Shown in pieces: positions 40,701 through 54,165 of a stretch of 64,000 nt of DNA; the stretch's first letter is position 1, and every line of letters begins with the position of its first letter. Source of the DNA: Bacteroidota bacterium. Its GTDB lineage: Bacteria > Bacteroidota > Ignavibacteria > Kryptoniales > JAKASW01. The stretch covers positions 124,001 to 188,000 of the forward strand of contig JAJYIT010000004.1 of NCBI GenBank assembly GCA_021789975.1, in the 5' to 3' direction. The notes beneath the pieces are model-generated. The model did not search any database and was not told where the DNA came from. It saw only the letters and a program-made list of their open reading frames with translations. Position numbers and translations under genes: made by a program.

Positions 40701-41018
40701 ATTATAAGTAATTCTCTTAGGTGTCCCGCCTGTCGCCGGCATGACGTAAATGGCCTCTGGCCCATCGTAGCTTGCAGTGAACGCTATCGACTTCCCATCC
40801 GGCGAGAAGCGTGCGCGGTATTCTTCACCGGGAAAAGAAGTAAGCCGGGTTGCCGTACCACCGTTGGTGCTTACAAGCCACAGGTCACCTTCGTAAGTGA
40901 AGACTATCTCGTTTCCGTGGATATCCGGGTAAGTCATGAACCTTGCCTGCTCCTGTGCAAAGAGCGGCAGGGAAAACGCCATGACAAGAAGTGAGATTCC
41001 GTACGATACTTTTCTCAT
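37767..41018 (-). CDS. Exported tricorn-type S41 protease
   Basis: A 1083-residue protein with a signal peptide at residues 1-21. The N-terminal two-thirds is a WD40/TolB-like double beta-propeller (RFSPDGKSIAFTASYDGPEA, VTWTPDGKRVVFRSYW, LLWSPDSRKILFGNKEFDL). A PDZ-like domain follows (GDYLIAINGHQIKAPEDYFK), then an S41 peptidase core: GIIIDVRRNSGGW and VVISNEYNGSDGEAFLEDFK, with the Ser of NGSDGEA as nucleophile, and GGLTGY. Tricorn proteases degrade short peptides; the signal peptide places this one outside the cytoplasm. RBS GGAGGG; single gene with a strong terminator. Confidence 0.93.
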   Translation of the reverse strand: MRKVSYGISLLVMAFSLPLFAQEQARFMTYPDIHGNEIVFTYEGDLWLVSTNGGTATRLTSFPGEEYRARFSPDGKSIAFTASYDGPEAIYVMPATGGTPKRITYNPGDDETVTWTPDGKRVVFRSYWENFIYRDPNLYFADKDGSAPMRFPIDRGRDCSFNADGSKMLYVRKGPEAYYWKRYKGGWYPDIWMYDFKANKFTPITTYVGVNSSPMWIGNDMYYVCDSVNGISNIYKRNLPTGKITVLTHYNDVDVMDPSTDHKDIVYLHSGYLNIMDVATGETKQIAVNCPSDNWQMRDRVINPKKYIHYATISNDGKNIAIEAIGDVFIVPADSGQTLNLSNSPGTREMYPQVSPDGKWVAFFSDKTGEYEIYIQRVEGGKWDQLTTSLDRTDYHLLWSPDSRKILFGNKEFDLFYIDVATKELHKFASSNQLKNDEFYWEISDYCWSPDSKWIAYSFVHYNRNSVIYLYSLDQNKSYPITNDFYDNINPRFDANGKYLYYLSSRNFDVQMDFYEDDHVIDTPQEVMVVQLQSGLKPPFAGPVEKDEPKASDKFRIDLDGIESRTYPLPVPPGNDFYLTAGDGKVAWCSVPKFTHLEFGEIFNPGGETKWTLHIFDMKDKKESVLPEKIAEFSGSINGKYMVIERNSKIYSTSWDEAYKSHELGEKVSLSGMRYTVDPEKEWLQIFNDVWRWYRDFFFDPNMFGLNWKKIGDEYRAYIPHIRSRQQLNWVLSQMVGELSVSHTYFFGGDNGPDQAPKSKVFTGWLGADLVPDMASGYYKFSAIYGPTEYNLSLKSPLDRPDINVKEGDYLIAINGHQIKAPEDYFKYLQVIEGEKVSVTVNDKPTEEGARTYEVLPIRNSPDLRYFKWLTHNINLVEKESHGELGYMHINAMGGANIGEFDKFWRAFRYKKGIIIDVRRNSGGWTEYFMIDKLERKMVAYDVLHHMVPFRYPGSTSTGKYVVISNEYNGSDGEAFLEDFKANHLGLIVGTRSWGGLTGYVNEEMTIDNGEGTQPNNGFYGKEGKWWIEGHGMDPDIHVMNDPASVMEGKDPQLQAAIKTAMQEIKEHPFTFPKQPPYPVKTK

Positions 41019-42059
41019 CGATCCCTCCGGGTTGTTTATTTAAAGAAATGAGCCACTGGCAAAAATCCTCCCAAATAAAATGCGCAAACGACTGCGGGGC
41101 CGCGTTCCAGTGAAAGGACATTGTACCAGCTGCAGCGGGCCATGCCATTGAGTTCGCGACTTGAATATAGCAGCATATCGCGGAAAATGCTGGCAGAAAC
41201 TCCGGGTCAAGAGACCCATCCACTGCGCAGTCGGAAGAGGATTCCACGGCGATCCCCAATATGAAAACTCTTTTTAACTCCACCCGACGCATGTAATTTT
41301 TGTGACCCTCCTCTTGCATCAAGGATCCGTGTTCCATAGACTAAACCAATATCTCGGCGTGCGACATTGGCGGCCCAAGCAGCAATTCACCGGAGCAAGC
41401 GACTCCGGACGGGCATTGCATCTGTAGCCAGCAGTCCGTTTCCTACTTTCGCCGGGACAGGTTCCAACGGATGGCGTGGTACTTTGCGGAAGATCATTTT
41501 TGCCGACCCCTGCACTCCTTTAGGTTAACCACCTCTTTTTTCCTCCGCTCCAGTAAGTAATTGAAGCTCCCTCTTTAGTGATTTTGACGGCTTTGGGGCA
41601 ATTTAAGCGTTTTCGATCTCAACTTACGTCCGCTCTGTCTGAATTCGCGCACACTCCGCATTAATTGTTGCAATCTTGAGGTCGATTTACGCACGCTTGA
41701 GTCCGATTTTTGTCAACTCTTTTTCGATTTTTGTGAGTCTGAACCCGGTCTGTGGAGTCCCGACTTTGAGCGGCATAGGGGCACAGCAAAATCGAGCACC
41801 TCATGACTCAACTTGTGGAGAGGATAGGGTCAGTCGGTTCGTCTGAACAGAAAATTACATCTTAATCGGGCAGCAGACGGTCGGGCGGTGTCTCAATTTT
41901 ATTTCGTGCCTGTCTACCGCAGGCAAGGTCCGCAAAGTGAAGGACGGCGAGACCGCGCAGGGTCATTTGCGTGAAGAATTAATCAAGCTGATAGACTACT
42001 GACGGTTGCTTGTTCAGCGTTGATGGTTTAGATTTTTGACATCATGGCGGTCGACATTG
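41019..42059. other. Long non-coding region
   Basis: About 1040 bases with no supported gene on either strand. Between about 41680 and 41745, similar words recur roughly every 20 bases (GTCGATTTACG, GTCCGATTTTTGT, TTCGATTTTTGT), a weak degenerate tandem pattern. A small GCCTG/CAGGC hairpin lies near 41908-41925. The promoter of the tricorn gene should be near its right end. Confidence 0.5.
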
Positions 42060-43258
42060 ATGGATGAATCGCAAATCAGGGCTGCACTGTTCGACTGGCT
42101 GGGAAAAGAAAGCGAGAAGAACGGCGGAAGAAAAGATTTAACCGCAGAGCACGCAAAGGGCGTAAATACAAAACGGTTCTCACTTTGTGGACTTTGCGAT
42201 AGTTTTAAGAAAACCGCTTTGCGACCTTCGTGGTTAAAAGAGCTGAGCCCCCATGGTCCCTCGCTCTGCAAGATTCACAACGGCGCTTTCGATCTGAAGG
42301 ATCTTGTCCACATGACCATGCGGACGGACAAGGAGCTTCATGGTCACAAGATTATTTTCCCTCATCACAAGTCCGATAAGGATAAAGGATTGAATGATTC
42401 CCTTGAAGGTGCGGCAATGGAGACGTTGAAGTGGATAGCCTACGAAAAACGGTTGGATTCTCCTAAGGCAGAGCTTGAGAAGTTTGGGTGTCCCCATTGC
42501 GAGATGAACGTTGCACGATCCCCTTTGACGAAGAAAAGGGTAAATGCCCGAATTGCAATGGTGAAATATTTATTACTGATATGTTCGGACTGCATCAGAA
42601 CATGACCGATGATTTTGCCCCAAGCCAAGTTGCCTCTGACTACATGGCGGTGAGCGAAGCGCTAATGATATTTACCCCGATTCGTTACTTTTGGGAAAAA
42701 AAGAAGGAGGTTTTGCATAACTGCCTTTTCGTCAAAGATGGACCGCTTTCTTTGCGGGCCACTCTTGCAAAGCTTTCAGCCCCCATTAGGAGATTCTTCA
42801 ACTATGCCAAAGAGAATGGAGTAAACGTCGCGATGATAGGCCAAGAAAAGACAGGGCAATTCTTTGATCACCTCCAGTTGATCGGAGGTGCGGCCCCAGT
42901 CAGTGCCTACTTCATACCCGATAACAAGTACATCCAAGAGCACATAAAGCACAACAACACGACTGCCATCTACGGGGCGGACACGAACTATGGCGCTAAG
43001 TTGTTTGTAAAATTGAACGACTATCACAACATGGTGCTCAACATTCCAACAGGAGAACGTGGGGAATTCGTTACCTCACCCTCACAAGATCATCTCATAA
43101 ATTTTAAAAACATTACAGCGACTTTATCGAGGATTCTCAGCAATCGATGCGAAGGCGCACTGCTTCCTATCGAACTGGCTAACAAAATTGCATCACTTTC
43201 AACCTATCCATCAGCAAAAGCACTCGAGTTGTTCTCTAATGCCATGAAAAGTACGTAG
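42060..43258 (+). pseudogene. NurA-family nuclease, frameshifted
   Basis: Two overlapping frames make one protein. The first (42060-about 42500) ends with KFGCPHC. The second continues CTIPFDEEKGKCPNCNGEIF, then FVKDGPLSLRATLAKLSAPI, VAMIGQEKTGQFFDHLQLIG, YGADTNYGAKLFVKLNDYHN and a C-terminal LLPIELANKIASL. DGPL, the GxEKtG segment and YG-x-x-t-x-YG are typical of NurA-domain nucleases that pair with HerA ATPases in DNA repair and anti-phage modules. One missing base near 42490-42515 would give about 399 residues with an intact Cys-pair cluster. The first acidic DGS motif was not found; a palindromic repeat occupies that part (42137-42239). No HerA gene lies nearby. Confidence 0.75.
42137..42239 (+). 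repeat. Imperfect palindromic repeat inside the NurA-like gene
   Basis: It begins TTTAACCGCAGAGCACGCAAA and ends CTTTGCGACCTTCGTGGTTAAAA. The ends are imperfect inverted repeats (TTTAACC.. with ..GGTTAAA; CGCAAAG with CTTTGCG). It reads in frame as low-complexity sequence. Similar AACCACGAAGG / CGCAAAG words occur as dispersed intergenic repeats in many environmental bacterial genomes, from general memory. Probably a miniature element inserted in the gene. Confidence 0.55.
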
Positions 43259-43700
43259 AACCCAGATTGTATTTTTCACTTCTGCGAGCGTTCCATTCTC
43301 ATGGCAGACTTGGCCCAAGACCGCAACTCCCGCACATAGATCGCACTGCACCATCGGAAAATACTGTCTAGTCCTGCGGGTCCGGCAAGGCAACCTGTGT
43401 GGTTGCGACGTTGAAGGTCGGTTCCAGACATTTATCCTGCTGACCTACTGATTGTTCAATCGCCGCTCTACTCAAGGAGAGCGGATAAGCGACGTAATCA
43501 TTTTCACATTCTATATTTCGCCCTGGAACGAATCATCAATTGTTTTGCTTTCCCGTTCTCTCGAGCTGATCGCAGATGGAACACGAAGTTACCAGGCACG
43601 ATGACCCGAAAGTATCCGTGGAAAACTCGGGAAGGCGAGCGAGCACCATTTAGCAAAGGCAGCTGCACTTATCGGCGTAGAATAGTTGGAACCTGCGGCG
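43259..43700. other. Intergenic region before the XRE-ImmA gene
   Basis: No gene is visible. A 7-bp hairpin CCGCTCT/AGAGCGG with an 8-base loop lies at 43463-43484 and may terminate transcription from the NurA-like gene, although no T run follows. Confidence 0.4.
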
Positions 43701-43736
43701 GTTGACAAACGTTGTCATTTCTGTTAATTTGTCAAC
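43701..43736 (+). promoter_or_regulatory. Promoter and palindromic operator of the XRE-ImmA gene
   Basis: GTTGACAAA (43701-43709) and TTTGTCAAC (43728-43736) are perfect 9-base inverted arms. The left arm contains the TTGACA -35 box, and a TTAATT -10 follows about 16 bases later just before the right arm. The ATG of the HTH gene is 21 bases downstream. Autorepression by the XRE domain is the simplest reading. Confidence 0.7.
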
Positions 43737-43757
43737 TGACATCAGGAGGAAAACACA

Positions 43758-44834
43758 ATGGTGGGGGAACGCATAAAACAACGCAGGATCGCGCTCGGTC
43801 TCTCCCTCGATCAGCTTTCGGAGAGAACCGGGAGCTTCGTGACCAAACAGGCAATCCATAAGTACGAGCAGGGAACCACAATGCCGGGCTCGGATGTGCT
43901 CCTGAAACTCGCCGCCGCGCTCGGCGTCAAAGTGGAATTCTTCTTCAGGGAACCGGAACACGCCGTGGAGCTCGGAGAGCCTGCCTACCGGAAGCGCGGG
44001 AGCGCCTCGGCAAAGAGTCTCAACGCAATTCAAGCCAGTGCAAAGGAATTCCTTGAACGCTATCTCTTCGTTGAATCGCTCTTTCCTGCCGACAGGTTCG
44101 GGAAGTTCACTATACCGTCGGTACCCGAAAGGACTATGAGGAAGCTGGAGGATGCCGAGACGCTGTCTCTCGGACTCCGCAAGAGATGGAACCTAGGCAT
44201 CGATGCTATCGAGGATGTTATGGAGATTTTCGAAGACAGGGGCGTCAAGGTGGTTCTACTCGGAGGTGAAGAAAGCTTTGACGGATTATCCTCATGGGCC
44301 AACACAAAAGTTCCCGTGGTTGTAGTTAGAAAGGGGTTGCCTGGAGATCGCCAGAGGTTCAATCTCGCTCATGAGCTTGGACACCTGCTTATGATACATT
44401 CAAGAAAATTTGACTCTGAGAAAGCCGCGCACCGATTTGCCGGCTCATTTCTCGTACCGGCTGAGGCAGCTTATCAAGAGCTTGGAGCAACGAGGCGCCA
44501 CATCGACATCCTGGAGCTGGCAATGCTGAAGGAGAAATACGGAATGAGCATGCAGGCGTGGATTTTCAGGGCGCACGACCTCGAAATAATTTCAGATTCA
44601 TACGCTTCTTCACTCTACAAATTGTTCCGCGCAAAAGGATGGAACAGGAATGAGCCGGGTAAAGCAGTGCCCGAGGAAACTCCCCATAGGCTTGAACGGT
44701 TGATTCTCCAGGCTGCAAGCGAAGATCTGATATCGCCGCCGCGTGCGGCCGAGCTGCTTGGGAAGCCGCTCGACGAATTCCGCAAAAAGATGGGAGCCGT
44801 GCTTGTCGGAGGAGAAACAGCGGTTAGTAGTTGA
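43758..44834 (+). CDS. XRE-ImmA/IrrE (DUF955) regulator-protease fusion
   Basis: A 358-residue protein with AGGAGG before ATG 43758. Residues 1-60 form an XRE helix-turn-helix (RIALGLSLDQLSERTGSF, then QAIHKYEQGTTMPGSDVLLK). Residues about 130-250 form a DUF955 zinc protease: FNLAHELGHLLMIH (HExxH) and AHRFAGSFLVPAEAA. Such fusions repress an adjacent gene and can cleave the repressor or partner under stress. Its 3' end overlaps the PIN-domain gene, so the two form a toxin-antitoxin-like pair. Confidence 0.92.
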   Translation: MVGERIKQRRIALGLSLDQLSERTGSFVTKQAIHKYEQGTTMPGSDVLLKLAAALGVKVEFFFREPEHAVELGEPAYRKRGSASAKSLNAIQASAKEFLERYLFVESLFPADRFGKFTIPSVPERTMRKLEDAETLSLGLRKRWNLGIDAIEDVMEIFEDRGVKVVLLGGEESFDGLSSWANTKVPVVVVRKGLPGDRQRFNLAHELGHLLMIHSRKFDSEKAAHRFAGSFLVPAEAAYQELGATRRHIDILELAMLKEKYGMSMQAWIFRAHDLEIISDSYASSLYKLFRAKGWNRNEPGKAVPEETPHRLERLILQAASEDLISPPRAAELLGKPLDEFRKKMGAVLVGGETAVSS

Positions 44835-45309
44835 TACTTCCGTTTGCATCGACCTCTTTAACGGCCGGATAGTAAGCGAGACTGTGAGACTCCCATATGA
44901 CTTTCTTCTTCCGGATGTCATACTGGTCGAGGAACTCAAGGAGCCGTCCGGAGAGGAGTTGATCAGGCGCGGATTCATAGCCGCAGGTACAACCGGCGAA
45001 GAGATGCGCACTGTAGAGGAACTGAGCAAGAAGTACGGACGGCCATCAAGGAATGATCTCTTTGCACTGACGATTGCGAAAGTCAGAGGGCTCACGCTCC
45101 TCGGCGGCGATAAGGACCTGAGAAACTCTGCACGACGCGAGGGCGTAGCTGTCCATGGTACGATTTGGATCCTCGACCGGCTTATTGCCGAGTCAAACAT
45201 AATAGATGAGATCGCCGCTGATGCGCTTGAAAGGATAATGAGCTCCGGAGCAAGACTTCCCAGGAAAGAGTGCACGGATCGTCTGAGAAAATGGAGGATG
45301 CCAAATTGA
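44803..45309 (+). CDS. PIN-domain RNase (putative toxin)
   Basis: A PIN-fold protein of about 168 residues: RLVVDTSVCIDLFNGRI (first Asp), LPDVILVEELKEPSGEEL (acidic helix), RPSRNDLFALTIAKVRGLTL (second Asp, spacing as in VapC) and LLGGDKDLRNSARREGVAVH (third acidic group). VapC-type proteins cut tRNA or rRNA. The start is unclear: TTG 44803 is the nearest canonical codon, while GGAGGAG at about 44809-44815 sits just before the conserved VVDTS with no ATG/GTG between. It overlaps the end of the XRE-ImmA gene by about 32 bases, implying coupled translation. Confidence 0.8.
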   Translation: MSEEKQRLVVDTSVCIDLFNGRIVSETVRLPYDFLLPDVILVEELKEPSGEELIRRGFIAAGTTGEEMRTVEELSKKYGRPSRNDLFALTIAKVRGLTLLGGDKDLRNSARREGVAVHGTIWILDRLIAESNIIDEIAADALERIMSSGARLPRKECTDRLRKWRMPN

Positions 45310-45566
45310 AGGACCATCCTTGTAGGTGATTGCCCGCCCTATTTCATAGCATCGGCGGATCGGGATGACAGGTGGCCTGGAGGGATGCCAGCTCCTCAAT
45401 TCCGCGTTGTGGCGCGATGAAGCCATGAATTACTTTTCCGCCAAATTCAAGAAACCAGATCACGTTTCATGGTGTTGTATGATACTGACCGACTCAGCCG
45501 GCATGAACTCTTCTGACGGAAGACAGCCGGTCAAATTTGAAACTATCCAGATTGAATGAGTCTCCA

Positions 45567-46391
45567 ATGTCAAACTTCGCCGAACGTCCGCCGATCCTCT
45601 ATCAGGAAGTTGCGCCTCCGTCCGCGCTCGCCGGGCTCGTCTTCTGTTATTGGAAATTCGAGTACAACCCCTTAGGTGATGGTACAGCAAATCCGAAAGT
45701 GCTCCACCACTCGGTGCTTCCCGACGGGTGCGTATCTCTTTTTTTCCAAAACTGCGAGTCCTCTCAGGGCGGCAGGATGCTGATCGGCTTCCTCGGTCCG
45801 AGAACAACAGTCTTTAAGACCGAAGTCCCGCCCGGCCACATGATTGTCGGAGTCCGCCTCTTTCCGGCAGTGGCAAATTTCTTGTTCGGTATCACTGGTG
45901 CGATGTTGAGAGACAAAGTGATCGACGCGACGCCTTATACCAGGGGCTTAGATTTCGAATCGATACCGGCAAAACTGAAACCCGGGTTTACGGACTTTCG
46001 ATTGCTCGATGCGCTGCTTCTGAAGTGCGCAGAGAAAGCCGTCGAACTTCCTGACAGCGACGTTGTACGCGCGATAAACGGTATACTCGAAAGCGGCGGG
46101 AAGACACGTATCGGTCCGGTTTCATCGTCCGCTGTCGTGAGCGAACGCCAGCTGCAGCGGGAGTTCAAACGAAGCGTCGGTCTTACAATGAAAGAGTTTG
46201 CCCGCGTCCGACGCATGAGAAACTCGGTGATCGACTATCTCATGAACGATAGGAACCTCCAGGACCTCGTCCACGATAACGGATATTGTGACCAGGCGCA
46301 TCTCATAAAGGACTACTCGCTCGTCTCCACCACCAATCCCACCGCATTGCTTAAGTATCTCTCGGAGATTTCACACAAGGACGTAACCTGA
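45567..46391 (+). CDS. AraC-family regulator with DUF6597-like N-terminus
   Basis: A 274-residue protein starting at ATG 45567. The N-terminal domain has the DUF6597-type pattern (LAGLVFCYWKFEYNP, VLPDGCVSLFF, VGVRLFPAVANFLFGITGAM), presumed to sense a ligand. The last 100 residues form an AraC double HTH (SERQLQREFKRSVGLTMKEF, then ARVRRMRNSVIDYL and YCDQAHLIKDYSLVSTTNPT). The final helix is atypical (usually G-x-S-P-x-x-Y/F). The ligand and targets are unknown. The exported DUF1579 protein follows 70 bases later on the same strand and may be its target. Confidence 0.85.
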   Translation: MSNFAERPPILYQEVAPPSALAGLVFCYWKFEYNPLGDGTANPKVLHHSVLPDGCVSLFFQNCESSQGGRMLIGFLGPRTTVFKTEVPPGHMIVGVRLFPAVANFLFGITGAMLRDKVIDATPYTRGLDFESIPAKLKPGFTDFRLLDALLLKCAEKAVELPDSDVVRAINGILESGGKTRIGPVSSSAVVSERQLQREFKRSVGLTMKEFARVRRMRNSVIDYLMNDRNLQDLVHDNGYCDQAHLIKDYSLVSTTNPTALLKYLSEISHKDVT

Positions 46392-46461
46392 CGGGGCATG
46401 TCGTTTTTTTACAATTAATCTCACAAAGGTTTCATTTATCTTGGTTCAAAGAGGAGGAGAA

Positions 46462-47019
46462 ATGTCGATGAAGTATTTCAACGCACGGAACGTTATCGGA
46501 ACAGTAGTAGTGCTGCTTTCATGTGCCACAATAAGCATAGCACAGGAAGGACCTGACCCTGCCCAGGTGTCGGCCATGAAGAAGCTTGATTTCCTTACCG
46601 GCAAGTGGAAGGGAAGCGGCTGGATATTTGTCCGCGGCGGTAAGCGAAGGACATTCGGCGAGATGGAGAACATCGGCTGGAAAGCCGGCGGTCTCGTGAT
46701 GACAATAGACGGAAAGGGAAAGGCGCGGAACCCATCGAAAGGTAAAGAACGGTCGGTCCATAACGCGTTTACAGTAGTATCATACGACAGAGCCGGCGGT
46801 TATCGGTGGGGAGCCTTCCTCTCAACCGGCCAGTCGACGGTGGCACACGGACACCTGGAGAGCGCCAACACGTTCGTCTGGGAAATGGAAATCCCGCAGA
46901 TGGGAACGATGAGATACACGATCAAGATAAACGGCAACAAGTGGGATGAAACCGCAGCACGGTCCACAAATGGTAAGAAATGGATCCCCTTTTTCGGTAT
47001 GGCATTGACCCGGCAATAA
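46462..47019 (+). CDS. Exported DUF1579-like protein
   Basis: A 185-residue product from ATG 46462 with a GGAGGAG site; the frame opens 21 bases earlier at a TTG. A signal peptide covers residues 1-25 (ends ISIAQ). The mature domain begins DPAQVSAMKKLDFLTGKWKG, the L-x-G-x-W motif of lipocalin-like DUF1579 proteins, and ends with strands such as GTMRYTIKINGNKWDE. These probably bind a small ligand; no function is known. Confidence 0.78.
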   Translation: MSMKYFNARNVIGTVVVLLSCATISIAQEGPDPAQVSAMKKLDFLTGKWKGSGWIFVRGGKRRTFGEMENIGWKAGGLVMTIDGKGKARNPSKGKERSVHNAFTVVSYDRAGGYRWGAFLSTGQSTVAHGHLESANTFVWEMEIPQMGTMRYTIKINGNKWDETAARSTNGKKWIPFFGMALTRQ

Positions 47020-47048: not shown

Positions 47049-47585
47049 TCACCTGCCGCTTCCGCTGTCCGGCACAAAGATCAGAGCCGCCGAATTGATG
47101 CAATACCTCTTCCCGGTGGGCGGCGGTCCGTCGTCGAAGACATGGCCGAGATGATTGCCGCCCTCGTCGAGCACCTCGATACGCGGCTCGCCGGGAAGAC
47201 TGTAATCCCAGCGAAGTACAACTGCGTTCGGGTTGATCGGCGCCCAGAAGCTCGGCCAGCCTGTGCCTGAATCGTACTTCTGCTTCGAACTGAAGACAGG
47301 CTGGTGTGTTGCTGCACTCAAATAGATTCCCTTCCTGAATTCGTGATCGAGCGGTCCCGAGAAAGCCATTTCAGTCCCGGCATCGCGCAATATGTAATAC
47401 TGCATCGGAGTGAGAATCTTCCTCCACTCTGCGTCCGTCTTGAACTCACTGCTGTCGAATGTTCCGGAAATGAGCTTTCCATCGCCCGGCGCCGGTCCGA
47501 CTGCAGCATTTGCATGATGGTACATCGTCAGCCCGATGACGGCAATTATGAGTACGAACAAACCGGTCTCGATTTTCCTTTTCAT
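47049..47585 (-). CDS. msrB: Exported methionine-(R)-sulfoxide reductase
   Basis: The start is ATG 47585 behind GGAGGAG. The product of about 178 residues has an N-terminal membrane segment or signal (GLFVLIIAVIGLTMYHHANA), so it is periplasmic or membrane-anchored. MsrB motifs: PMQYYILRDAGTEMAFSGPL, KYDSGTGWPSFWAPI, VLDEGGNHLGHVFDDGP and the catalytic Cys in GKRYCINSAALIF. The two CxxC zinc sites of many MsrB proteins are absent. It repairs oxidised Met residues and needs reductant, which the adjacent DipZ-type protein 18 bases upstream could supply. Confidence 0.95.
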   Translation of the reverse strand: MKRKIETGLFVLIIAVIGLTMYHHANAAVGPAPGDGKLISGTFDSSEFKTDAEWRKILTPMQYYILRDAGTEMAFSGPLDHEFRKGIYLSAATHQPVFSSKQKYDSGTGWPSFWAPINPNAVVLRWDYSLPGEPRIEVLDEGGNHLGHVFDDGPPPTGKRYCINSAALIFVPDSGSGR

Positions 47586-47602
47586 GACTCTCCTCCTCTC
47601 TC

Positions 47603-49345
47603 TCATCCGAACGTAAACGCGAATGCTTCGATGCCCGGCGTCTCGAATTTCAGGCGAAGCAAGTGACTGCCCGTACTTCCTATCAGATTAACGAGATTGT
47701 ACAGTCGAGCAGAGTCTATCGTCAGCACTCCGTCTTTCACATCCAAGCCAGCGTCTGAAACATTGGCAGGCTTTCCATCGACGAATACTTTCACTTTTGC
47801 TCCCGCTGCCGCTTTTCCCGGCCGGAGGACCAGGAAGACTTTGTCTGCATGGAAGTGATAGTTCAATTCAGCGCCCGGTCCTGCTACCGCTTCGTGCTGT
47901 TTGATGTCCCAGTTGCCGCCGAGGCTGAAGGAATTCACCGCCGGGTCTTTCGCGAGCACGAACTCGCGGTCGCCCTTGTTCACGGTGCCTGACGGATAGA
48001 AGTACTCCATCCTGCACGCGCCCAAATATGTTTCCGGCGACTGGTTGCCGTTCGGAGTCTGATTAGGAACGTTTGACAACGGCGAACTGACATTGTGCCC
48101 GGCCTGCTGAAGCAGCGTCCTGATCGCCATCTCCATCTTGCCATATTCACCTTCACCGAAGTGCGTCCTGCGTATGATACCGTTCGCATCGATCAGATAT
48201 TCCGCGGGCCAGTACTCGTTGTTGTAATTGTTCCACGTCGCATAATCGTTGTCCTGTGCAACGGGATAATGTATGTGATACATCTTTATCGCGTCGAGCA
48301 CGTTTTTAGCATTGTGCTCAAACTGAAACTCGGGTGTGTGTACCCCGATGACGATGAAGCCGTCGTTCTTGTACTTATCGTACCACGCCGTGACATGAGG
48401 GAGTGTGCGGATGCAGTTGATGCAGGTGTAGGTCCAGAAGTCGACCAGGACTACTTTCCCTCTCAAATCTTTTAGAGAGATAGACGAATCGGTGTTGAGC
48501 CACTTCGTGATCCCGACGAAATCAGGGGCAGGCTGATCGGCATTGAAGTATGGATTATTCTCCGACACGGGAACCATCGCTGCCGGTTTTTCTCCTTTAA
48601 GGAGATCGAGCTGTTTCGTGACTGCTCCGTTGCTTTCGAACCCGTTGAGACTTGCGCTGAATTGGGGAAAATCGTTCAGGAGTTTTGTCTCCAGGTATTT
48701 ATCGTAGTTCGTGTACATCGCGACCGCCGTCAGGAGCATGATCACGCCGAACACCTGCTGTATTCTTCCGGTGTATCGCGAGAGGAAGCGCGTGCGCGTA
48801 ATAACCTGTCGACCGCCGTATGCAAAAATGAACAGCGGTATGCCGACGCCGGTGACGTAAGCAAGCGTAACGAGTACGACATCCAGCGTAACCTTTCCCG
48901 TCGCCGCAAGAGCCGCGATCGCAGCGAGGATCGGGCCGGCGCAAGGCGACCAAACGATCCCGAGTGAGATTCCCGTAATGAAACCGGCAAGCAGTCCGCT
49001 TCCTTGCTTGGATTTTTGTCCGAACAGACCGGAGAGCCTGCTTATCATAGTTTCGAATATTCTCGACAGTGCCGGCACTATCATGGTCACTCCGAGCAGG
49101 GCGATGATCGCGATTGCGGCAATGCGAAGGGTGTCGGCATCGAAATGAAATGCTTTGACGAGATATGAAATCGCAAGCGTGAAGAATGCGAAGCTCAGCA
49201 CGATGCCTAAAGTAATGCCGAGCGGTCTCCTTCTCCCCTGTCCCGCGACCGAAGATGAAAGGACTATCGGAAGTATTGGCCAGATACAGGGCGCGAGAAT
49301 CGTCACCAGCCCCGCGAGAAATGCAAATCCAAGTAGGACGATCAT
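47603..49345 (-). CDS. dipZ: DipZ-type CcdA-thioredoxin electron conduit
   Basis: A 580-residue membrane protein. Residues 1-225 are a CcdA/DsbD-like multi-helix domain with a conserved Cys in LAPCIWPILPIVLSSSVAGQ and another in GIVWSPCAGPILAAIAALAA. A TlpA-like thioredoxin domain follows (LVDFWTYTCINCIRTLPHV, a CxxC redox centre; IVIGVHTPEFQFEHNAKNV). The C-terminal 140 residues match the beta-rich DipZ tail (YHFHADKVFLVLRPGKAAAG). It should carry electrons from cytoplasmic thioredoxin to the periplasm. It lies directly upstream of msrB in one operon. Confidence 0.92.
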   Translation of the reverse strand: MIVLLGFAFLAGLVTILAPCIWPILPIVLSSSVAGQGRRRPLGITLGIVLSFAFFTLAISYLVKAFHFDADTLRIAAIAIIALLGVTMIVPALSRIFETMISRLSGLFGQKSKQGSGLLAGFITGISLGIVWSPCAGPILAAIAALAATGKVTLDVVLVTLAYVTGVGIPLFIFAYGGRQVITRTRFLSRYTGRIQQVFGVIMLLTAVAMYTNYDKYLETKLLNDFPQFSASLNGFESNGAVTKQLDLLKGEKPAAMVPVSENNPYFNADQPAPDFVGITKWLNTDSSISLKDLRGKVVLVDFWTYTCINCIRTLPHVTAWYDKYKNDGFIVIGVHTPEFQFEHNAKNVLDAIKMYHIHYPVAQDNDYATWNNYNNEYWPAEYLIDANGIIRRTHFGEGEYGKMEMAIRTLLQQAGHNVSSPLSNVPNQTPNGNQSPETYLGACRMEYFYPSGTVNKGDREFVLAKDPAVNSFSLGGNWDIKQHEAVAGPGAELNYHFHADKVFLVLRPGKAAAGAKVKVFVDGKPANVSDAGLDVKDGVLTIDSARLYNLVNLIGSTGSHLLRLKFETPGIEAFAFTFG

Positions 49346-49477
49346 TTGTTAACCTCTCTATTTGTAACAGGTGCTTGTCTGATTCAACATTTACTACATT
49401 GGATTTGTCGAACGAACGAAGAAAACCTTACAGCAAGCAGATAACTATTGGAGGGTTCTTATTCTCGATAGACAAAT

Positions 49478-49726
49478 CTAACTCTTCATGAACCCTTCGA
49501 GCGCAGCTTCCATCCTTTTCTTCTCCTCACCCATGAGTGACTCCGCTGCCACCATTGTCCTCACTGCCCGTGAGATAGCCTCCGTCTGCGCGAGGAACCG
49601 GCGACAGAACTCGCAAACTTTGAGATGCGCACGAAGCTTGAACCTCTCGCGAAGGGTCAACGCGCGCTCCTGCTTCTTGCAGATCAACAAAGTTGCCTGC
49701 CTGCACGGTATGATCGCCATCTTCAT
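49478..49726 (-). CDS. Small zinc-finger (ZAS/zf-HC2-like) putative anti-sigma factor
   Basis: An 82-residue protein whose ATG (49726) lies one base after the sigma-factor stop, so it is coupled to it. The HxxxCxxC motif is in FKLRAHLKVCEFCRRFLAQT, with an earlier Cys pair (CRQATLLICKK), as in zinc-binding anti-sigma factors. There is no membrane helix, so it is a soluble ZAS protein like the redox-sensitive RsrA class. The dipZ-msrB operon follows 132 bases downstream on the same strand. Confidence 0.75.
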   Translation of the reverse strand: MKMAIIPCRQATLLICKKQERALTLRERFKLRAHLKVCEFCRRFLAQTEAISRAVRTMVAAESLMGEEKKRMEAALEGFMKS

Positions 49727-49727
49727 C

Positions 49728-50318
49728 TCAGGAGCGAATCCAATTTTTCTCAATGCAGTGTCTCAGCACAAGCTTGGCCCTGTGCATAATCACCCAGTAA
49801 TTTGACGGAGATACGGACAATTCCTTACATATCTCGTCGGACTCTAACTCATCGAGATATTTCAGAGAAAATACGGCGCGGCATTGTGCAGTCAGCTTCG
49901 ACAGGCATCTCTGGAGAGTATCAAAGAACTCCTTCGAACGATATTCGTCTTGACCGCCGGCGCTCCAGTCGGACGGCTTTGTCGTATCTTTCCATCCGCC
50001 GTCTTCGCCGAAATAATAATCATGTCCGGCGTCATCTTCAGATAGTGGTACAACATTCTCGGCAGTGTTCTTTCTATAGTGATCGATAATCTTGTTTTTC
50101 AATATCGAGAAGAGCCATGTTTTCTCGGAGCTGTCTCCTCTGAACGATGTCGTTCCTCGAAGTGCGGCAAGAAATGTATCCTGGACCATGTCACGTGCGG
50201 TTTCCCTGTCGCTGATGCGCATGATGGCATAGTTGAACAACGCATCGGCATATCTTGCGACCCAGGTCGGCGGCGAAGTTTTCGTTTCAAGCATTGGCTG
50301 TGGTAATTTTCTCAACAT
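49728..50318 (-). CDS. ECF-type RNA polymerase sigma factor
   Basis: The start is taken as ATG 50318, giving 196 residues, normal for an ECF sigma factor. Sigma region 2 is at residues about 15-80 (ALFNYAIMRISDRETARDMV, QDTFLAALRG, KTWLFSILKNKIIDHYRKN) and region 4 near the C-terminus (LSKLTAQCRAVFSLKYLDEL, ICKELSVSPSNYWVIMHRAK). The linker is longer than usual and acidic. The open frame runs on to 50663, but that part reads through a duplicated gene fragment and a repeat. A small ZAS protein follows. Confidence 0.9.
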   Translation of the reverse strand: MLRKLPQPMLETKTSPPTWVARYADALFNYAIMRISDRETARDMVQDTFLAALRGTTSFRGDSSEKTWLFSILKNKIIDHYRKNTAENVVPLSEDDAGHDYYFGEDGGWKDTTKPSDWSAGGQDEYRSKEFFDTLQRCLSKLTAQCRAVFSLKYLDELESDEICKELSVSPSNYWVIMHRAKLVLRHCIEKNWIRS

Positions 50319-50369
50319 TAGTGGGACTTCGCCGGTTCCTATCCAGTACGAAGAGAGAAAGCCGAGTAA

Positions 50370-50448
50370 CCTTGCGAAGGTTTCTCGCCTTCGCAAGGTA
50401 CCTGACTTTTCCTCCTCTTCCTTCCACAACTTGTAATCGAACCTCGCG
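50370..50448 (+). repeat. Left direct repeat flanking the hipBST module
   Basis: It contains CCTTGCGAAGGTTTC (50370-50384, same as 52293-52307) and a 33-base block (50416-50448) identical to 52378-52410. In the right copy the block is the 3' coding end of the YdeI-like gene (RFDYKLWKEE), so the left copy is a duplicated gene fragment. ACCTTGCGAAGG/CCTTCGCAAGGT also forms a perfect 12-base inverted pair here. Confidence 0.8.
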
Positions 50449-50478
50449 AGCCTGTGGCCGTCCCAAAAGTGTTGTTCC

Positions 50479-50573
50479 GTCATCCCGAACCCTGGACTGA
50501 TACGCTCCAGGTCAGGCTTGTTTCGGGGTCTCAAGACAAATGGAATTAGACGCTGAAACAAGTCCAGCATGAC
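50479..50573. repeat. REP-like inverted element pair
   Basis: GTCATCCCGAA at 50479 with CTTGTTTCGGGGTCT near 50517-50531 forms one palindromic unit. AGACGCTGAAACAAG and CAGCATGAC end at 50573 in the opposite orientation. GTCAT-x-CTGAACTTGTTTCAG-like words are familiar dispersed intergenic repeats in Bacteroidota and other genomes (general memory). It accounts for most of the gap between the sigma gene and hipB. Confidence 0.6.
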
Positions 50574-50838
50574 CGCTCTCGTTGTTTTGAGGCAGCCTCT
50601 TCTTCCGTTTCGACGATTCTCAAATCTTTTCAGACAGCCTTTCCATGTGCCGGCTCGAATCAAGCGGCCATATTTACCGCCACCGCAGTAATGTGAGATG
50701 CGCAGGGCTTCATAACCCCTTCGTCATACTCGCAAGAGTCAGAAATTACCGCTGTAGCAGTAATCTGCTTGACAAACTCATACTATCGGCATATCTTGAA
50801 AGAAAACACGAGAAGATTACCGCCCGAGCGGTACGACC

Positions 50839-51069
50839 ATGAGCAGGATTGATAACATCGCCGAGGTAGTACGCTTTCACAGGAAGGAAGCCGGACTCAC
50901 TCAAAAACAATTGGCCGACCTTGCCGGTGTCGGCAAGACCGTCGTCTTCGACATCGAAAAAGGGAAAGCATCGGTGCGGCTCGACACGCTTGAGAAAGTC
51001 CTTGATGCACTCAACTTGAAAATGACCGTCCACGGCCCTTTGATGAAACGGGAAAATGAAAAAGGCTAA
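50839..51069 (+). CDS. hipB: HipB-like antitoxin (XRE helix-turn-helix)
   Basis: A 76-residue DNA-binding protein with a Y4mF/HipB-type HTH: EVVRFHRKEAGLTQKQLADL, AGVGKTVVFDIEKGKASVRL, DTLEKVLDALNLKMTVHGP. It would bind the promoter and the toxin. The ribosome site is weak. Its end overlaps the next gene by 14 bases. First of three coupled genes in the order hipB-hipS-hipT. Confidence 0.88.
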   Translation: MSRIDNIAEVVRFHRKEAGLTQKQLADLAGVGKTVVFDIEKGKASVRLDTLEKVLDALNLKMTVHGPLMKRENEKG

Positions 51070-51364
51070 GGTCTACAACCTCGGCAGGTATGCCGGTGAA
51101 CTCATCGAACTCGAGAAAGGAAAATCCTACCGCTTCCAATATGACGACGCGTATGATGGTACACCTGTATCGCTGACCATGCCGCTGTCAAAGAAGCTTT
51201 ATGAGTTCGACAAGTTCCCTCCGTTCTTCGAGGGTCTCCTTCCAGAAGGGATACAGCTCGAAGCGCTGATTCGTCAGACGAAGACAGACCGGGACGATTT
51301 ATTCTCCCAACTTATCATCGTGGGTGGAGATCTCGTCGGCTCGGTGACGGTCGAGGTCGAATGA
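51056..51364 (+). CDS. hipS: HipS-like protein (HipA N-terminal subdomain as separate gene)
   Basis: A 102-residue protein corresponding to the HipN/couple_hipA domain: AKVYNLGRYAGELIELEKGK, then FPPFFEGLLPEGIQLEALIR and LFSQLIIVGGDLVGSVTVEV. In one-piece HipA this is the N-terminus of the kinase. Here it is a free protein, as in the E. coli O127 HipBST system, where HipS and not HipB neutralises the kinase. It overlaps hipB by 14 bases and hipT by 4 bases. Confidence 0.88.
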   Translation: MKKAKVYNLGRYAGELIELEKGKSYRFQYDDAYDGTPVSLTMPLSKKLYEFDKFPPFFEGLLPEGIQLEALIRQTKTDRDDLFSQLIIVGGDLVGSVTVEVE

Positions 51365-52287
51365 ATCTCTGTCCCATCACATACGAGCCGTGCGGAGATC
51401 AGAAATATTCCGTCAAAGGCCTGAGGCTGTTGTCGCGCGGCCTGAAGACTTTGAACGACATCTCGATGACGCAGGAAGAGCAGTTGCGAGAAGCGGCCGT
51501 GCGAGCGACCAAGATGTCGATACAAGGCATCCAGCCGAAGCTCAGTGCGGTACTCAATGTAAAAGCGAGCTCTTTTGAAATTGTAGACAGAGGCGGAAGA
51601 TTTATCCTTAAGCCGCAGAGCAATCTGTACCCCGAGCTTCCCGAAAACGAAGATCTTACGATGCGACTCGCGAAGTCGGCGGGACTGGAAATCCCTTTGC
51701 ACGGCATGGTGTATTCGGCAGACAACCGGCTGACTTACTTCATTCAGCGGTTCGACAGACACGGCAAAACGGGTAAATACTCGCTTGAAGACTTCGCGCA
51801 ATTGTCGGGAAAGTCCAGAGACACCAAATATGATTACAGCATGGAAAAGGTCGCGGATATTATTGAGAGATATTGCACCTTCCCCCTCGTGGAAAAGCTG
51901 AAATTGTTCAGACTGACTTTGTTCAACTTCTTAGTCGGCAATGAAGACCAGCACCTGAAGAATTTCTCCTTGATCACGCGCGATGGAAAAGTTTCCATCT
52001 CTCCTTCTTACGACTTGATCAACACCACGATCGCGCTTGCGAGTCCGCAGGAGGAAATAGCCCTTCCGCTGAAGGGTAAAAAGAGAAACCTGACCCGCGA
52101 CATCTTGGTGGATTACTGGGGAAAGGAAAGACTCGGACTCAACGAACGGACGATTGGAAATGTAGCGAGTGAGATTGAGCTTGCCGTGCCGGGATGGAGG
52201 GAGACTATCGGTAGGAGTTTTCTTTCGGACAAAATAAAAGAAAAATATTCGGCACTTCTAACCGATCGAGCGAACTTGCTCTTTTGA
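51361..52287 (+). CDS. hipT: HipT-like Ser/Thr kinase toxin
   Basis: A 308-residue HipA C-terminal kinase without the N-subdomain. Gly-rich loop: KMSIQGIQPKLSAVLNVKAS, the Ser/Gln-rich loop whose serines are autophosphorylated in HipT. ATP-binding Lys: FILKPQSN. Catalytic segment: FNFLVGNEDQHLKNFSLITR, with Asp and Asn. Metal Asp: SPSYDLINTT. The toxin phosphorylates a tRNA synthetase (GltX for HipA, TrpS for E. coli HipT); the target here is unknown. The ATGA overlap with hipS keeps the two in step. Confidence 0.9.
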   Translation: MNLCPITYEPCGDQKYSVKGLRLLSRGLKTLNDISMTQEEQLREAAVRATKMSIQGIQPKLSAVLNVKASSFEIVDRGGRFILKPQSNLYPELPENEDLTMRLAKSAGLEIPLHGMVYSADNRLTYFIQRFDRHGKTGKYSLEDFAQLSGKSRDTKYDYSMEKVADIIERYCTFPLVEKLKLFRLTLFNFLVGNEDQHLKNFSLITRDGKVSISPSYDLINTTIALASPQEEIALPLKGKKRNLTRDILVDYWGKERLGLNERTIGNVASEIELAVPGWRETIGRSFLSDKIKEKYSALLTDRANLLF

Positions 52288-52292
52288 TGCCG

Positions 52293-52410
52293 CCTTGCGA
52301 AGGTTTCAACGCTGAGGTATAGCTATCTCTGCAAGGTCGCAGATGTGTCCTTATCTTTTTCCTCCCTTCTATTCTTTTCTTCCTTCCACAACTTGTAATC
52401 GAACCTCGCG
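52293..52410 (+). repeat. Right direct repeat flanking the hipBST module
   Basis: It shares CCTTGCGAAGGTTTC and a 33-base identical block with 50370-50448; between them the two copies differ in length (about 31 versus 70 bases). The module and both flanks span about 2.0 kb. Confidence 0.8.
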
Positions 52411-52982
52411 GGCTTCTTCTCTTTCGACGATTCTGTAATCAGCTGATCGAGTCTCTTCATGCGTGTCGTTTCGCTCTTCGCCCGCATCACCCAGTGAGTC
52501 GCGGTCTTCCGGTATGACGCCGCCTGCTTGTTGAAGAAGTCCCAGGCTTGTCTGCTCGCTTTGAATTTCTTCTGGAAAGGTTTGCTGAATTCAGCGCCGT
52601 CCTGCTCGTAAGCGTAAATCCCCGTTCTGTCTTCCCGCCGATCATTGAAAACATCGAGTCCCGCCGGAGTCATCAGCCCAAGCTTGATAAGCTCTTTCGC
52701 CCTCCTGACATTTATATTGCTCCAGATGCTTCCCGGTTTCCTTGGCGTGAACCTCTTCGCCCACCTTTCTGCGTCGAAGCTTCTCAAAGCGCCGTCGATC
52801 CAGCCGAAGCAGAGTGCTTCATCAAGAGCCTGCGAATAAATCATCCCTTTATCGGAGGACTTCTTTTTGTACAAACCTACCCAGATTTCCTGTGCGGTAT
52901 CGTGGTTTTCTTCCAGCCATTTCCTGAATTGATCGGATGTCTTAAAATAGATCACTTCGTTGCCCTGCCTGTCGTGCTTCAT
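52323..52982 (-). CDS. YdeI/OmpD-associated family protein
   Basis: A 219-residue protein from ATG 52982. YdeI-type motifs: YFKTSDQFRKWLEENHDTAQ, EIWVGLYKKKSS, LDEALCFGWIDGALRSFDAE, WAKRFTPRKPGSIWSNINV, KELIKLGLMTPAGL. The C-terminal half (FFNKQAASYRKTATHWVMRA) is also family-typical. The function is unknown; some relatives protect against antimicrobial peptides. Its last codons (RFDYKLWKEE) form the repeat duplicated on the other side of hipBST, and the tail beyond is charged low-complexity sequence. Confidence 0.88.
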   Translation of the reverse strand: MKHDRQGNEVIYFKTSDQFRKWLEENHDTAQEIWVGLYKKKSSDKGMIYSQALDEALCFGWIDGALRSFDAERWAKRFTPRKPGSIWSNINVRRAKELIKLGLMTPAGLDVFNDRREDRTGIYAYEQDGAEFSKPFQKKFKASRQAWDFFNKQAASYRKTATHWVMRAKSETTRMKRLDQLITESSKEKKPARFDYKLWKEEKNRREEKDKDTSATLQR

Positions 52983-53224
52983 TGATACCCTCGCTGTTCT
53001 TTCATGGTACACTTCAAAATTCCATCTCGTAATAAAATGCATAACCAAGTTTTATCGTCGTTAGTTTCATGAAGGCAGCCAGGCTATTGCGTGCTGCGCG
53101 AAGTGGAACGCAGAAATCAGATAATCCGATCAACCTTCAGCACTCGCGGCTATTTTGAAACTACGGAACAGCTCGGCGCGGAAGATTGTTGAATAGGCAG
53201 TGATTTAAAAGAAAGAGAGGTGCC

Positions 53225-53707
53225 ATGATCGACAAGCAATATCTGCTGAAGCTAATAAAGACTGAGACAACGACCACCTTGAAAGTGATGCGTGCCTACC
53301 CGGAAGACAAACTTGAATTTGTACCTCACGCGCGTTCGTCCACCGCAAAGAAGATTATGTCAACCTGTCTGTTCGGGATGTATTTGATAAACTCTTACGT
53401 CTTCGAAGAGAATCTGGACCGGACGATTTTCCAGACATACTCGCCCGACAAGCTGGCTACGCTTCTTGCTGATTTCCAACAGGCGTCGTCGCACGTCATC
53501 GAAAGAGTCGGGAGGCTTACTCCGTCAGACCTGAGCAAGTCCTTCGATTTTGTCGGGCGCAAGATGGCCGCAGACGAGTTTGTTGTCGGAATGATTCTCG
53601 ACCAGGTACACCCCCGCGGGCAACTATCCGTATACATCCGCCTCGCGGGCGGGAAAGTCCCGTCTATTTACGGACCGAGTGCCGACGATCCGCCGAAAAA
53701 ACAATAG
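53225..53707 (+). CDS. DinB-like four-helix protein
   Basis: A 160-residue protein with GAGAGG before ATG 53225. The layout fits DinB/YfiT: an N-terminal helix, PEDKLEFVPHARSSTAKKIM, and near the C-terminus DQVHPRGQLSVYIRLAGGKV, a metal-binding His region followed by the common GGKVPSIYGPS ending. Of the three metal histidines only some are evident. The role is unknown, possibly thiol-S-transferase-like. It is followed 8 bases later by the SRPBCC gene. Confidence 0.82.
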   Translation: MIDKQYLLKLIKTETTTTLKVMRAYPEDKLEFVPHARSSTAKKIMSTCLFGMYLINSYVFEENLDRTIFQTYSPDKLATLLADFQQASSHVIERVGRLTPSDLSKSFDFVGRKMAADEFVVGMILDQVHPRGQLSVYIRLAGGKVPSIYGPSADDPPKKQ

Positions 53708-53715
53708 GAGCAATT

Positions 53716-54165
53716 ATGAACGACAAAATGATAACCACCGATTCGATCACGATAAATGCATCGCCGGCCCGCGTCTGGGACGTCCTCGTGAATCCTGCGA
53801 TGACGCGGAAATATATGTTCGACTGCGAGGCGCTTTCAAACTGGCAGCCGGGAAGCAGACTCGAATGGAAGGGCGCGGCGGATGGAAAGGTTTATGTCAA
53901 AGGGAACATCGTCGAAATCGAGAAAGACAGGCTTCTCCGCTACACGGTATTCGACCCGAACGGGGACCTCGACGACGTGCCTTCCAATTACCTTACAGTT
54001 ACTTATAACCTTTCAAGACAAAATGGTAATGGTACACTTCTCGAAGTCTCCCAGGGAGATTTTGCAAAAGTTCAAAACGGCCAGCAGAGATATGAAGATA
54101 CCCTGAATGGGTGGGGAACGGTTCTGAATAAGATAAAGGAGATCGCAGAAGAAGATGCAGGATGA
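53716..54165 (+). CDS. SRPBCC/AHSA1-domain protein
   Basis: A 149-residue START-like protein with AGGAG before ATG 53716. Motifs: ITINASPARVWDVLVNPAMT, RKYMFDCEALSNWQPGSRLE, then VKGNIVEIEKDRLLRYTVFD and a C-terminal helix (WGTVLNKIKEIAEE). These helix-grip proteins bind hydrophobic ligands or act with HSP90-like partners. It overlaps a second, interrupted SRPBCC gene by 11 bases, so the pair arose by tandem duplication. Confidence 0.88.
   Translation: MNDKMITTDSITINASPARVWDVLVNPAMTRKYMFDCEALSNWQPGSRLEWKGAADGKVYVKGNIVEIEKDRLLRYTVFDPNGDLDDVPSNYLTVTYNLSRQNGNGTLLEVSQGDFAKVQNGQQRYEDTLNGWGTVLNKIKEIAEEDAG

What the first reader, a model, noticed from the sequence alone, without database searches (positions are those of the whole stretch)
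42060..43258. Orphan NurA-family nuclease with one frameshift and an inserted palindrome
The DGPL and G-x-EKtG regions are intact, a single base restores the reading frame and the Cys-pair cluster, yet the region expected to hold the first catalytic motif is occupied by a 103-base palindromic repeat and no HerA is present. It may be the remains of an anti-phage HerA-NurA module, or a degenerate nuclease kept as part of the adjacent XRE-ImmA-PIN island.
Basis: partly seen in the sequence, partly recalled or inferred. Interest (0 to 1): 0.55.

Follow-up and report, generated by a model that had tools for sequence, protein, structure and literature searches.

The report
Fused wreck of two nuclease genes
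The stretch is very probably a dead hybrid gene: the two ends of an HNH nuclease gene with a common palindromic repeat between them, joined to the tail of a NurA nuclease gene; it is debris of lost DNA-defence-type genes and is itself ordinary.

Summary
The NurA tail is real; the reading of its front half is not. From about 42369 to 43258 the DNA encodes the C-terminal two thirds of a NurA-family nuclease, 80-83% identical to the three closest intact relatives (Bacteroidota MAGs), with one frame change between 42506 and 42539. Upstream, 42057-42371 is not NurA. It is the first ~24 codons and parts of the last ~80 codons of a ~300-aa HNH_2 endonuclease gene, intact in 4 of 12 other same-genus genomes, with its interior replaced by the palindrome. 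So the palindrome does not sit in NurA's catalytic motif: NurA's first ~152 model positions, DGS motif included, are absent. The palindrome belongs to a dispersed repeat family (112 places against 5 control in 13 genomes); another genome has a related one at the same HNH codon. The genome holds no module-type HerA and no D12 methyltransferase of the relatives' kind. XRE-ImmA-PIN is a separate unit. Best reading: a recombined pseudogene, part of it from a lost HerA-NurA module. In passing: relatives form a recurrent methyltransferase-HerA-NurA module resembling TdpAB, possibly a little-described restriction-modification system.

The parts
42057..42128 (+). 5' end (first ~24 codons) of an HNH_2-type endonuclease gene
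   Evidence: blastn 76-81% to the start of intact genes in L026, L028, L029 and L030; SW Z 16.6-18.5 against 4 HNH proteins, at most 1.2 against 7 NurA proteins
42137..42239 (.). Palindromic repeat of a dispersed family; arms 42137-42158 and 42217-42238; replaces the interior of the HNH gene
   Evidence: arm pattern 112 places against 5 control in 13 genus genomes, 8 against 0 in the own genome; fold z -2.5; related repeat at the same HNH codon in L027
42240..42371 (+). 3' part of the same HNH gene, itself shortened by about 20 codons
   Evidence: SW Z 9.6-14.2 against 4 HNH proteins, at most 0.7 against 7 NurA proteins; DNA 85% over 33 bases and 80-83% over 46 bases
42369..42539 (+). NurA remnant, first frame (model positions 153-205)
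   Evidence: E 9.1e-9 with the model of 11 relatives
42506..43258 (+). NurA remnant, second frame (model positions 202-450), with DGPL and G-x-EK-x-G; ends with the natural stop
   Evidence: E 1.2e-111; 80-83% aa identity to L008, L009, L010

Best explanation
A chimeric pseudogene made of two unrelated decayed nuclease genes. (a) An HNH_2 endonuclease gene, present intact elsewhere in the genus, lost its interior, which is now a palindromic repeat of a dispersed family. (b) Its 3' end was joined, near 42370, to the last two thirds of a nurA gene, so that nurA's start, its N-terminal third with the DGS motif, and the herA (and probably methyltransferase) genes that accompany nurA elsewhere are gone. 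(c) A one-base frame change broke the remaining nurA frame. The product would have no complete nuclease domain and no partner, so it most likely does nothing. Shown: the identities of the pieces, their borders, the repeat family, the absence of module-type HerA and D12 methyltransferase. Inferred: the order of events, and that recombination or deletion made the HNH-NurA joint.
For: Sharp switch of homology at ~42370 from HNH to NurA (model start 42369). Intact ~300-aa HNH genes in 4 of 12 other genus genomes, PF13391 hit for one of them. A decayed HNH gene with a related repeat directly after the same codon in G002 (L027), and an HNH 5' fragment plus repeat in G003 (L030). Full-length NurA relatives have the N-terminal third that is missing here, with an invariant Asp in the DGS/DGG/DAS motif. 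One frame change. No module-type HerA or D12 methyltransferase in the genome; 0 of the 12 other genus genomes have the nurA. Differences to L009 by codon position are 34/20/155 over 242 codons, so the piece was a protein-coding gene until rather recently; 6 of 95 residues invariant in six relatives are changed here (leave-one-out controls 0/95, 2/97, 4/99).
Against: The second frame is open for 256 codons with a possible GTG start at 42488 and little decay, so expression of a C-terminal piece is not excluded; the excess of changed residues over the controls is small. The HNH-NurA joint was seen in this one assembly only. All three pieces up to the frame change happen to be in one reading frame.
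Confidence: 0.9

Rival explanations
1. A short protein is still made: either the HNH-repeat-NurA fusion or the 256-codon C-terminal NurA frame acts on its own, for example as a DNA-binding or regulatory piece.
For: Open frame of 256 codons; differences to relatives are mostly at third codon positions; DGPL and G-x-EK-x-G are kept.
Against: No N-terminal third, no DGS motif, the Cys cluster split by the frame change, no HerA partner. The codon pattern is also expected of a recently dead gene.
Confidence: 0.05
2. An assembly or sequencing artefact: the joint or the frame change does not exist in the cell.
For: The genome is a draft in 85 contigs, the HNH-NurA joint has no second example, no reads could be seen, and the break is a one-base frame change.
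Against: The place lies well inside a 201-kb contig (one search gives the place, another the contig length); the HNH-plus-repeat arrangement recurs in G002, another assembly; the NurA N-terminal third is not found elsewhere in the genome.
Confidence: 0.04
3. One reading: a NurA gene whose first catalytic motif was interrupted by a palindromic insertion.
For: Frame and place fit roughly; tblastn lets some NurA matches run upstream to 42273.
Against: Z at chance for all 7 NurA relatives on both sides of the palindrome, high Z for all 4 HNH proteins; intact HNH genes carry these sequences; the NurA model starts at 42369.
Confidence: 0.01

Closest known systems
NurA nuclease (PF09376) of HerA-NurA complexes, e.g. 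Deinococcus radiodurans NurA-HerA (BMC Biol 2023, PMC9960219; start of abstract and passages seen)
   Same: The fossil's intact relatives resemble NurA chains in fold (VIA-align Z 6.1-7.0 to 3tal, 3taz, 3tai, 7f6d, 9x1n) and lie next to HerA; more distant members found with the same model pass the PF09376 cut-off (82.3 and 28.2 bits against 21).
   Different: The close relatives tested are not detected by PF09376, carry a Cys-pair cluster, and mostly stand beside a DNA methyltransferase. The window copy lacks the N-terminal third and HerA.
TdpAB (PDB 8wet, 8wfd, 8y1k); that Tdp is a phosphorothioate-linked defence of Thermus is from recall, no paper was in the library
   Same: Best structural match of the intact NurA relative: Z 13.5, 240 residues, rmsd 4.2; best solved-structure match of the module's HerA is TdpA, E 1.5e-23.
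   Different: Sequence identity about 10% for the nuclease; methyltransferase genes stand where Tdp (from recall) has a phosphorothioation gene. Only a remnant of the nuclease exists in the window.
HNH_2 (PF13391) endonucleases of putative restriction type; PADLOC models 'HNH' (PDLC04132) and 'Type II restriction enzyme' HNH (PDLC03546)
   Same: Start and end of the gene are recognisable at 42057-42371; intact same-genus copies hit PF13391 (E 1.7e-9) and PADLOC HNH (E 6.3e-21 and 1.6e-8).
   Different: The interior is replaced by a repeat; no HNH nuclease can be made.
Dispersed palindromic repeats of bacterial genomes (REP- or MITE-like, general knowledge)
   Same: Imperfect palindrome of ~100 bases, scattered through the genus.
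   Different: No named family identified; a literature search gave only general papers (listing only).

Membership tests
NurA nuclease family | sequence homology over the family domain | tested here: met
   42369-43249 matches positions 153-450 of the 452-position model, E 9.1e-9 and 1.2e-111; that alignment against one with a PF09376-positive member (L088): hhalign probability 100, E 2.9e-57
NurA nuclease family | complete nuclease domain with the N-terminal catalytic Asp (DGS) motif | tested here: not met
   model positions 1-152 absent; invariant Asp at position 69 of L008. The catalytic role of this Asp is from recall
NurA nuclease family | NurA/RNase H-like fold | tested here: inconclusive
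   model of the intact relative L009 (mean pLDDT 58.6): Z 13.5 to the TdpAB nuclease chain, 6.1-7.0 to NurA chains; the window copy itself was not modelled
HerA-NurA module | herA gene next to nurA | tested here: not met
   no module-type HerA in the own genome, none matching in the window; 23 of 24 relatives have it
HNH_2 endonuclease | homology to the gene's start and end | tested here: met
HNH_2 endonuclease | complete HNH domain and open frame of ~300 codons | tested here: not met
   interior absent, 42060-42134 and 42240-42371 only; no PF13391 hit on the pieces
Dispersed palindromic repeat family of this genus | two inverted arms of the TTTAACCGC...GCAAAG kind, many copies | tested here: met
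XRE-ImmA-PIN island | conserved linkage of nurA with XRE-ImmA-PIN | tested here: not met
   two same-genus genomes with XRE-ImmA-PIN have no nurA match
Restriction-modification system (for the intact relatives) | methyltransferase paired with a nuclease that spares methylated DNA | not testable with these tools
   gene pairing seen in 19 of 24 neighbourhoods; activity needs experiments

The most novel reading that the evidence does not exclude
The nurA piece is the last trace of a methyltransferase-HerA-NurA module that works as a restriction-modification system: a DNA methyltransferase marks self DNA and a TdpAB-like HerA-NurA machine destroys unmarked DNA, methylation taking the place that phosphorothioation has in the Tdp system. 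The module is scattered over bacteria, archaeal records, plasmids and phages, uses at least three forms of methyltransferase, and was lost in this lineage by recombination at a hot spot of defence-type genes.
Probability: 0.4. Interest if true: 0.6.

Novelty: new member of a known kind. Interest (0 to 1): 0.27.

Why it matters
For the finding itself: it removes a supposed oddity (a nuclease with a palindrome in its active site) and replaces it with an ordinary event, turnover of defence-type genes by repeats and recombination. It also shows how one continuous open reading frame can consist of two unrelated genes. The larger value lies in the intact relatives: a methyltransferase-HerA-NurA module that recurs across phyla, plasmids and phages and resembles TdpAB, which can be tested directly as a restriction-modification system.

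Tried and rejected
NurA Pfam profile in the own genome: no match. NCBIfam, PADLOC, Pfam and PHROGs on the window's nuclease pieces: only weak matches of no use. Viral-contig search with the C-terminal frame: 13 pattern matches, none a relative; with the alignment: 26 pattern matches, one relative (L094). tblastn of 42225-42371 against plasmids: only chance-level hits. DNA search of the whole palindrome in the own genome: only itself; the copies showed up only with arm patterns. PDB sequence search with the NurA alignments: only chance-level hits. Rfam over 41000-45400: no match at gathering threshold. Tandem repeats 41000-46700: none.

Considered and dropped: insertion of the whole stretch into this genome. 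G005, the closest relative seen (96.4% over 6.6 kb), lacks 41872-46628, but there the gene matching 46441-47019 is shorter on that side, which points to a deletion in G005. Considered and dropped: an AhpD-like gene remnant at 43325-43440; DNA matches exist (73-81%) but the protein-level test did not exceed its shuffles. tblastn let NurA matches run upstream to 42273; the shuffle test and the model border show that this extension is chance.

Literature: searches (listings), passages of four papers. No paper describing a methyltransferase-HerA-NurA module turned up in these; subscription papers and the 2004 FtsK-HerA survey (seen only as a citation) were not read, so this is weak evidence of novelty.

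Full report
What was claimed. An orphan NurA-family nuclease at 42060-43258 with one frameshift and a 103-base palindrome where the first catalytic motif should be, without HerA.

The NurA part is real. The C-terminal frame (42488-43258) has no useful Pfam, NCBIfam, PADLOC or PHROGs hit, but tblastn finds relatives in 5 plasmid records (29-33% identity; 3 of the 5 annotated as NurA), in two Vibrio phages (25%), and at 51-83% identity in six genome contigs plus one short fragment, L014. Eleven full-length relatives align over their whole length, with invariant D-G-P-L and G-x-x-K-x-G. A model from that alignment matches the window at 42369-42539 (positions 153-205) in one frame and at 42506-43249 (positions 202-450) in the next. 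The close relatives tested are not detected by PF09376, but distant members found with the same model pass its cut-off (L088 82.3 and L087 28.2 bits against 21), and an alignment with L088 matches the first at hhalign probability 100. An AlphaFold2 model of the intact relative L009 is of modest quality (7 sequences, mean pLDDT 58.6). Its best structural matches are the TdpAB nuclease chain (Z 13.5, 240 residues, rmsd 4.2; Foldseek E 2.6e-3) and then NurA chains (Z 6.1-7.0; the tool warns that Z under 8 can be a common arrangement), followed by RNase H-like proteins such as Argonaute from Z 4.5 down.

The front half is another gene. A search of 13 genus genomes with 41900-43757 gave matches to 42061-42127 and 42331-42376 that lie about 0.8 kb apart on one contig. 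There stands an intact HNH endonuclease gene of about 300 codons; G009, G012, G010 and G003 have one, that is 4 of the 12 other genus genomes. The copy of G012 hits PF13391. By blastn, window 42057-42127 is 76-81% identical to the start of these genes, 42260-42293 about 85% to the SLCKIH region (3 of the 4), 42331-42376 about 80% to the 3' end (3 of the 4). Shuffle tests are clear: 42060-42134 gives Z 16.6-18.5 against four HNH proteins and at most 1.2 against seven NurA proteins; 42240-42371 gives 9.6-14.2 and at most 0.7; 42372-42509 gives at most -0.3 for HNH and 14.2-46.8 for NurA. The homology switches at about 42370, where HNH 3'-end sequence and the NurA relatives' sequence meet. Hence NurA's first 152 model positions, with the DGS motif, are absent; they are not covered by a repeat.

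The palindrome. Arms 42137-42158 and 42217-42238 agree in 17 of 22 bases. Folded as single-stranded DNA the stretch gives -17.9 kcal/mol, z -2.5, 3 of 200 shuffles as good; the generic repeat finder did not report it. The arm pattern with up to 3 mismatches occurs at 112 places in 12 of 13 genus genomes against 5 for the reversed control; in this genome 8 against 0, two of the 8 being these arms. A stricter pattern gave 34 places in 9 of 13 genomes against 2, and none in this genome. It is a member of a dispersed repeat family. In G002 (L027) a decayed HNH gene carries a related repeat directly after the same codon, and in G003 (L030) an HNH 5' fragment with a repeat stands upstream of an intact copy. 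Of 10 dispersed HNH 5' fragments (the window's included; a further case at a contig end, L035, and repeated views of one place left out), 4 end at this same point (positions 136-137 of the probe): the window, L027, L030 and L037. In the first three a repeat follows, in L037 other genes do. Whether this is common descent or a preferred site is open.

What was lost. I looked at 24 neighbourhoods of intact or nearly intact relatives (L002-L013 and L083-L094; L082 is the same contig as L011 and not counted again; L014, a fossil, not counted; G139, G533, G537 and G598 were matched but not fetched with flanks). HerA is adjacent in 23 of 24 (not L092; in L002 it is split by an insertion element), and a DNA methyltransferase is adjacent in 19 of 24: not in the three cyanobacterial plasmids L003, L004 and L006, not in L087, and out of view at a contig end in L010. 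In L007 it is on the other strand; in L093 it is fused to a NurA start. The methyltransferases come in at least three forms: D12 class (PF02086) and two forms with the N6_N4 domain (PF01555). L092 (no HerA, NurA cut at the N-terminus) and L093 look partly decayed. In the window's genome no module-type HerA and no D12 methyltransferase match is found (the other methyltransferase forms were not searched there), and 0 of the 12 other genus genomes have the nurA. NurA matches occur in 14 of 395 genomes sampled from the phylum and 6 of 391 from the class, the window's own genome counted in both. A second decayed nurA 3' end, with a frame change, lies in L014.

Age and state. Over 242 codons the piece differs from L009 by 34, 20 and 155 bases at codon positions 1, 2 and 3; L008 and L009 differ by 31, 15 and 118. 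Of 95 residues invariant in six relatives 6 are changed here, against 0 of 95, 2 of 97 and 4 of 99 when L008, L009 or L010 is left out in turn, a small excess. So it was a working gene until fairly recently. GC at third positions is 51% against 18-30% in four relatives (L008-L011), so it did not come straight from one of them.

Setting. XRE-ImmA (43758-44834) and PIN (from about 44803) are a unit of their own: in G010 (L031) and G002 (L032) the shared DNA starts at 43688 or 43697, and nurA is not found in either genome. G005, the closest relative seen, is 96.4% identical over 47488-54065 and has 41461-41871 almost directly beside 46629, so 41872-46628 is missing there; since the gene matching 46441-47019 is shortened in G005, a deletion in G005 is likelier than an insertion here.

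Conclusion. A chimeric pseudogene: HNH 5' end, palindromic repeat, HNH 3' part, NurA C-terminal two thirds, one frame change. The identity of the pieces and their borders are shown; the order of events is inferred. It is ordinary debris of defence-type genes. The methyltransferase-HerA-NurA module of the relatives is the more interesting lead: the HerA of L008 is closest to TdpA among solved structures (E 1.5e-23) and the NurA model to the TdpAB nuclease chain. The function of Tdp as a phosphorothioate-linked defence is from recall; no paper on it was in the library. That such modules act as restriction-modification systems is inference from gene content.

Noticed in passing
L008:2066-6225, L009:626-4761, L011:4591-8744, L012:3505-7880, L013:2100-6228, L094:2146-6308 and others: Recurrent methyltransferase-HerA-NurA gene order in Bacteroidota MAGs, a Heimdallarchaeota MAG, plasmids and phage or viral contigs, with at least three forms of methyltransferase; HerA and NurA resemble TdpA and the TdpAB nuclease.
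   Followed up: partly
L027, L028, L030, L036, L037, L038, L026, L029 (same-genus genomes): The 5' end of the HNH gene is scattered as fragments; 4 of 10 end at the same point, followed by a palindromic repeat or by other genes, so the start of this gene looks like a recombination hot spot.
   Followed up: partly
L014:3223-3439: A second decayed nurA 3' end, in an Ignavibacteria MAG, preceded by what looks (from recall) like the start of a Crp/Fnr-type regulator, with a frame change.
   Followed up: partly
window 43758-45309: XRE-ImmA gene followed by a PIN-domain gene, conserved as a pair in two same-genus genomes; the first hits PADLOC RmrA models (best E 4e-51).
   Followed up: partly
window 41872-46628 against L099 (G005:C234): The closest relative seen lacks this 4.8-kb stretch; the flanking gene is shortened there, which suggests a deletion in that relative.
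   Followed up: partly
window 43325-43440: About 110 bases repeated at 73-81% identity in G005 (L033, several places) and in this genome's contig C9 (L034); nature unknown.
   Followed up: partly
L087:2441-8317: HerA-NurA followed by a 758-aa HsdR-like protein (ResIII, EcoEI_R_C, HSDR_N) with no methyltransferase adjacent.
   Followed up: no
L003, L004, L006 (cyanobacterial plasmids): Small helix-turn-helix gene, HerA and NurA in the same order on three plasmids, without a methyltransferase beside them.
   Followed up: no
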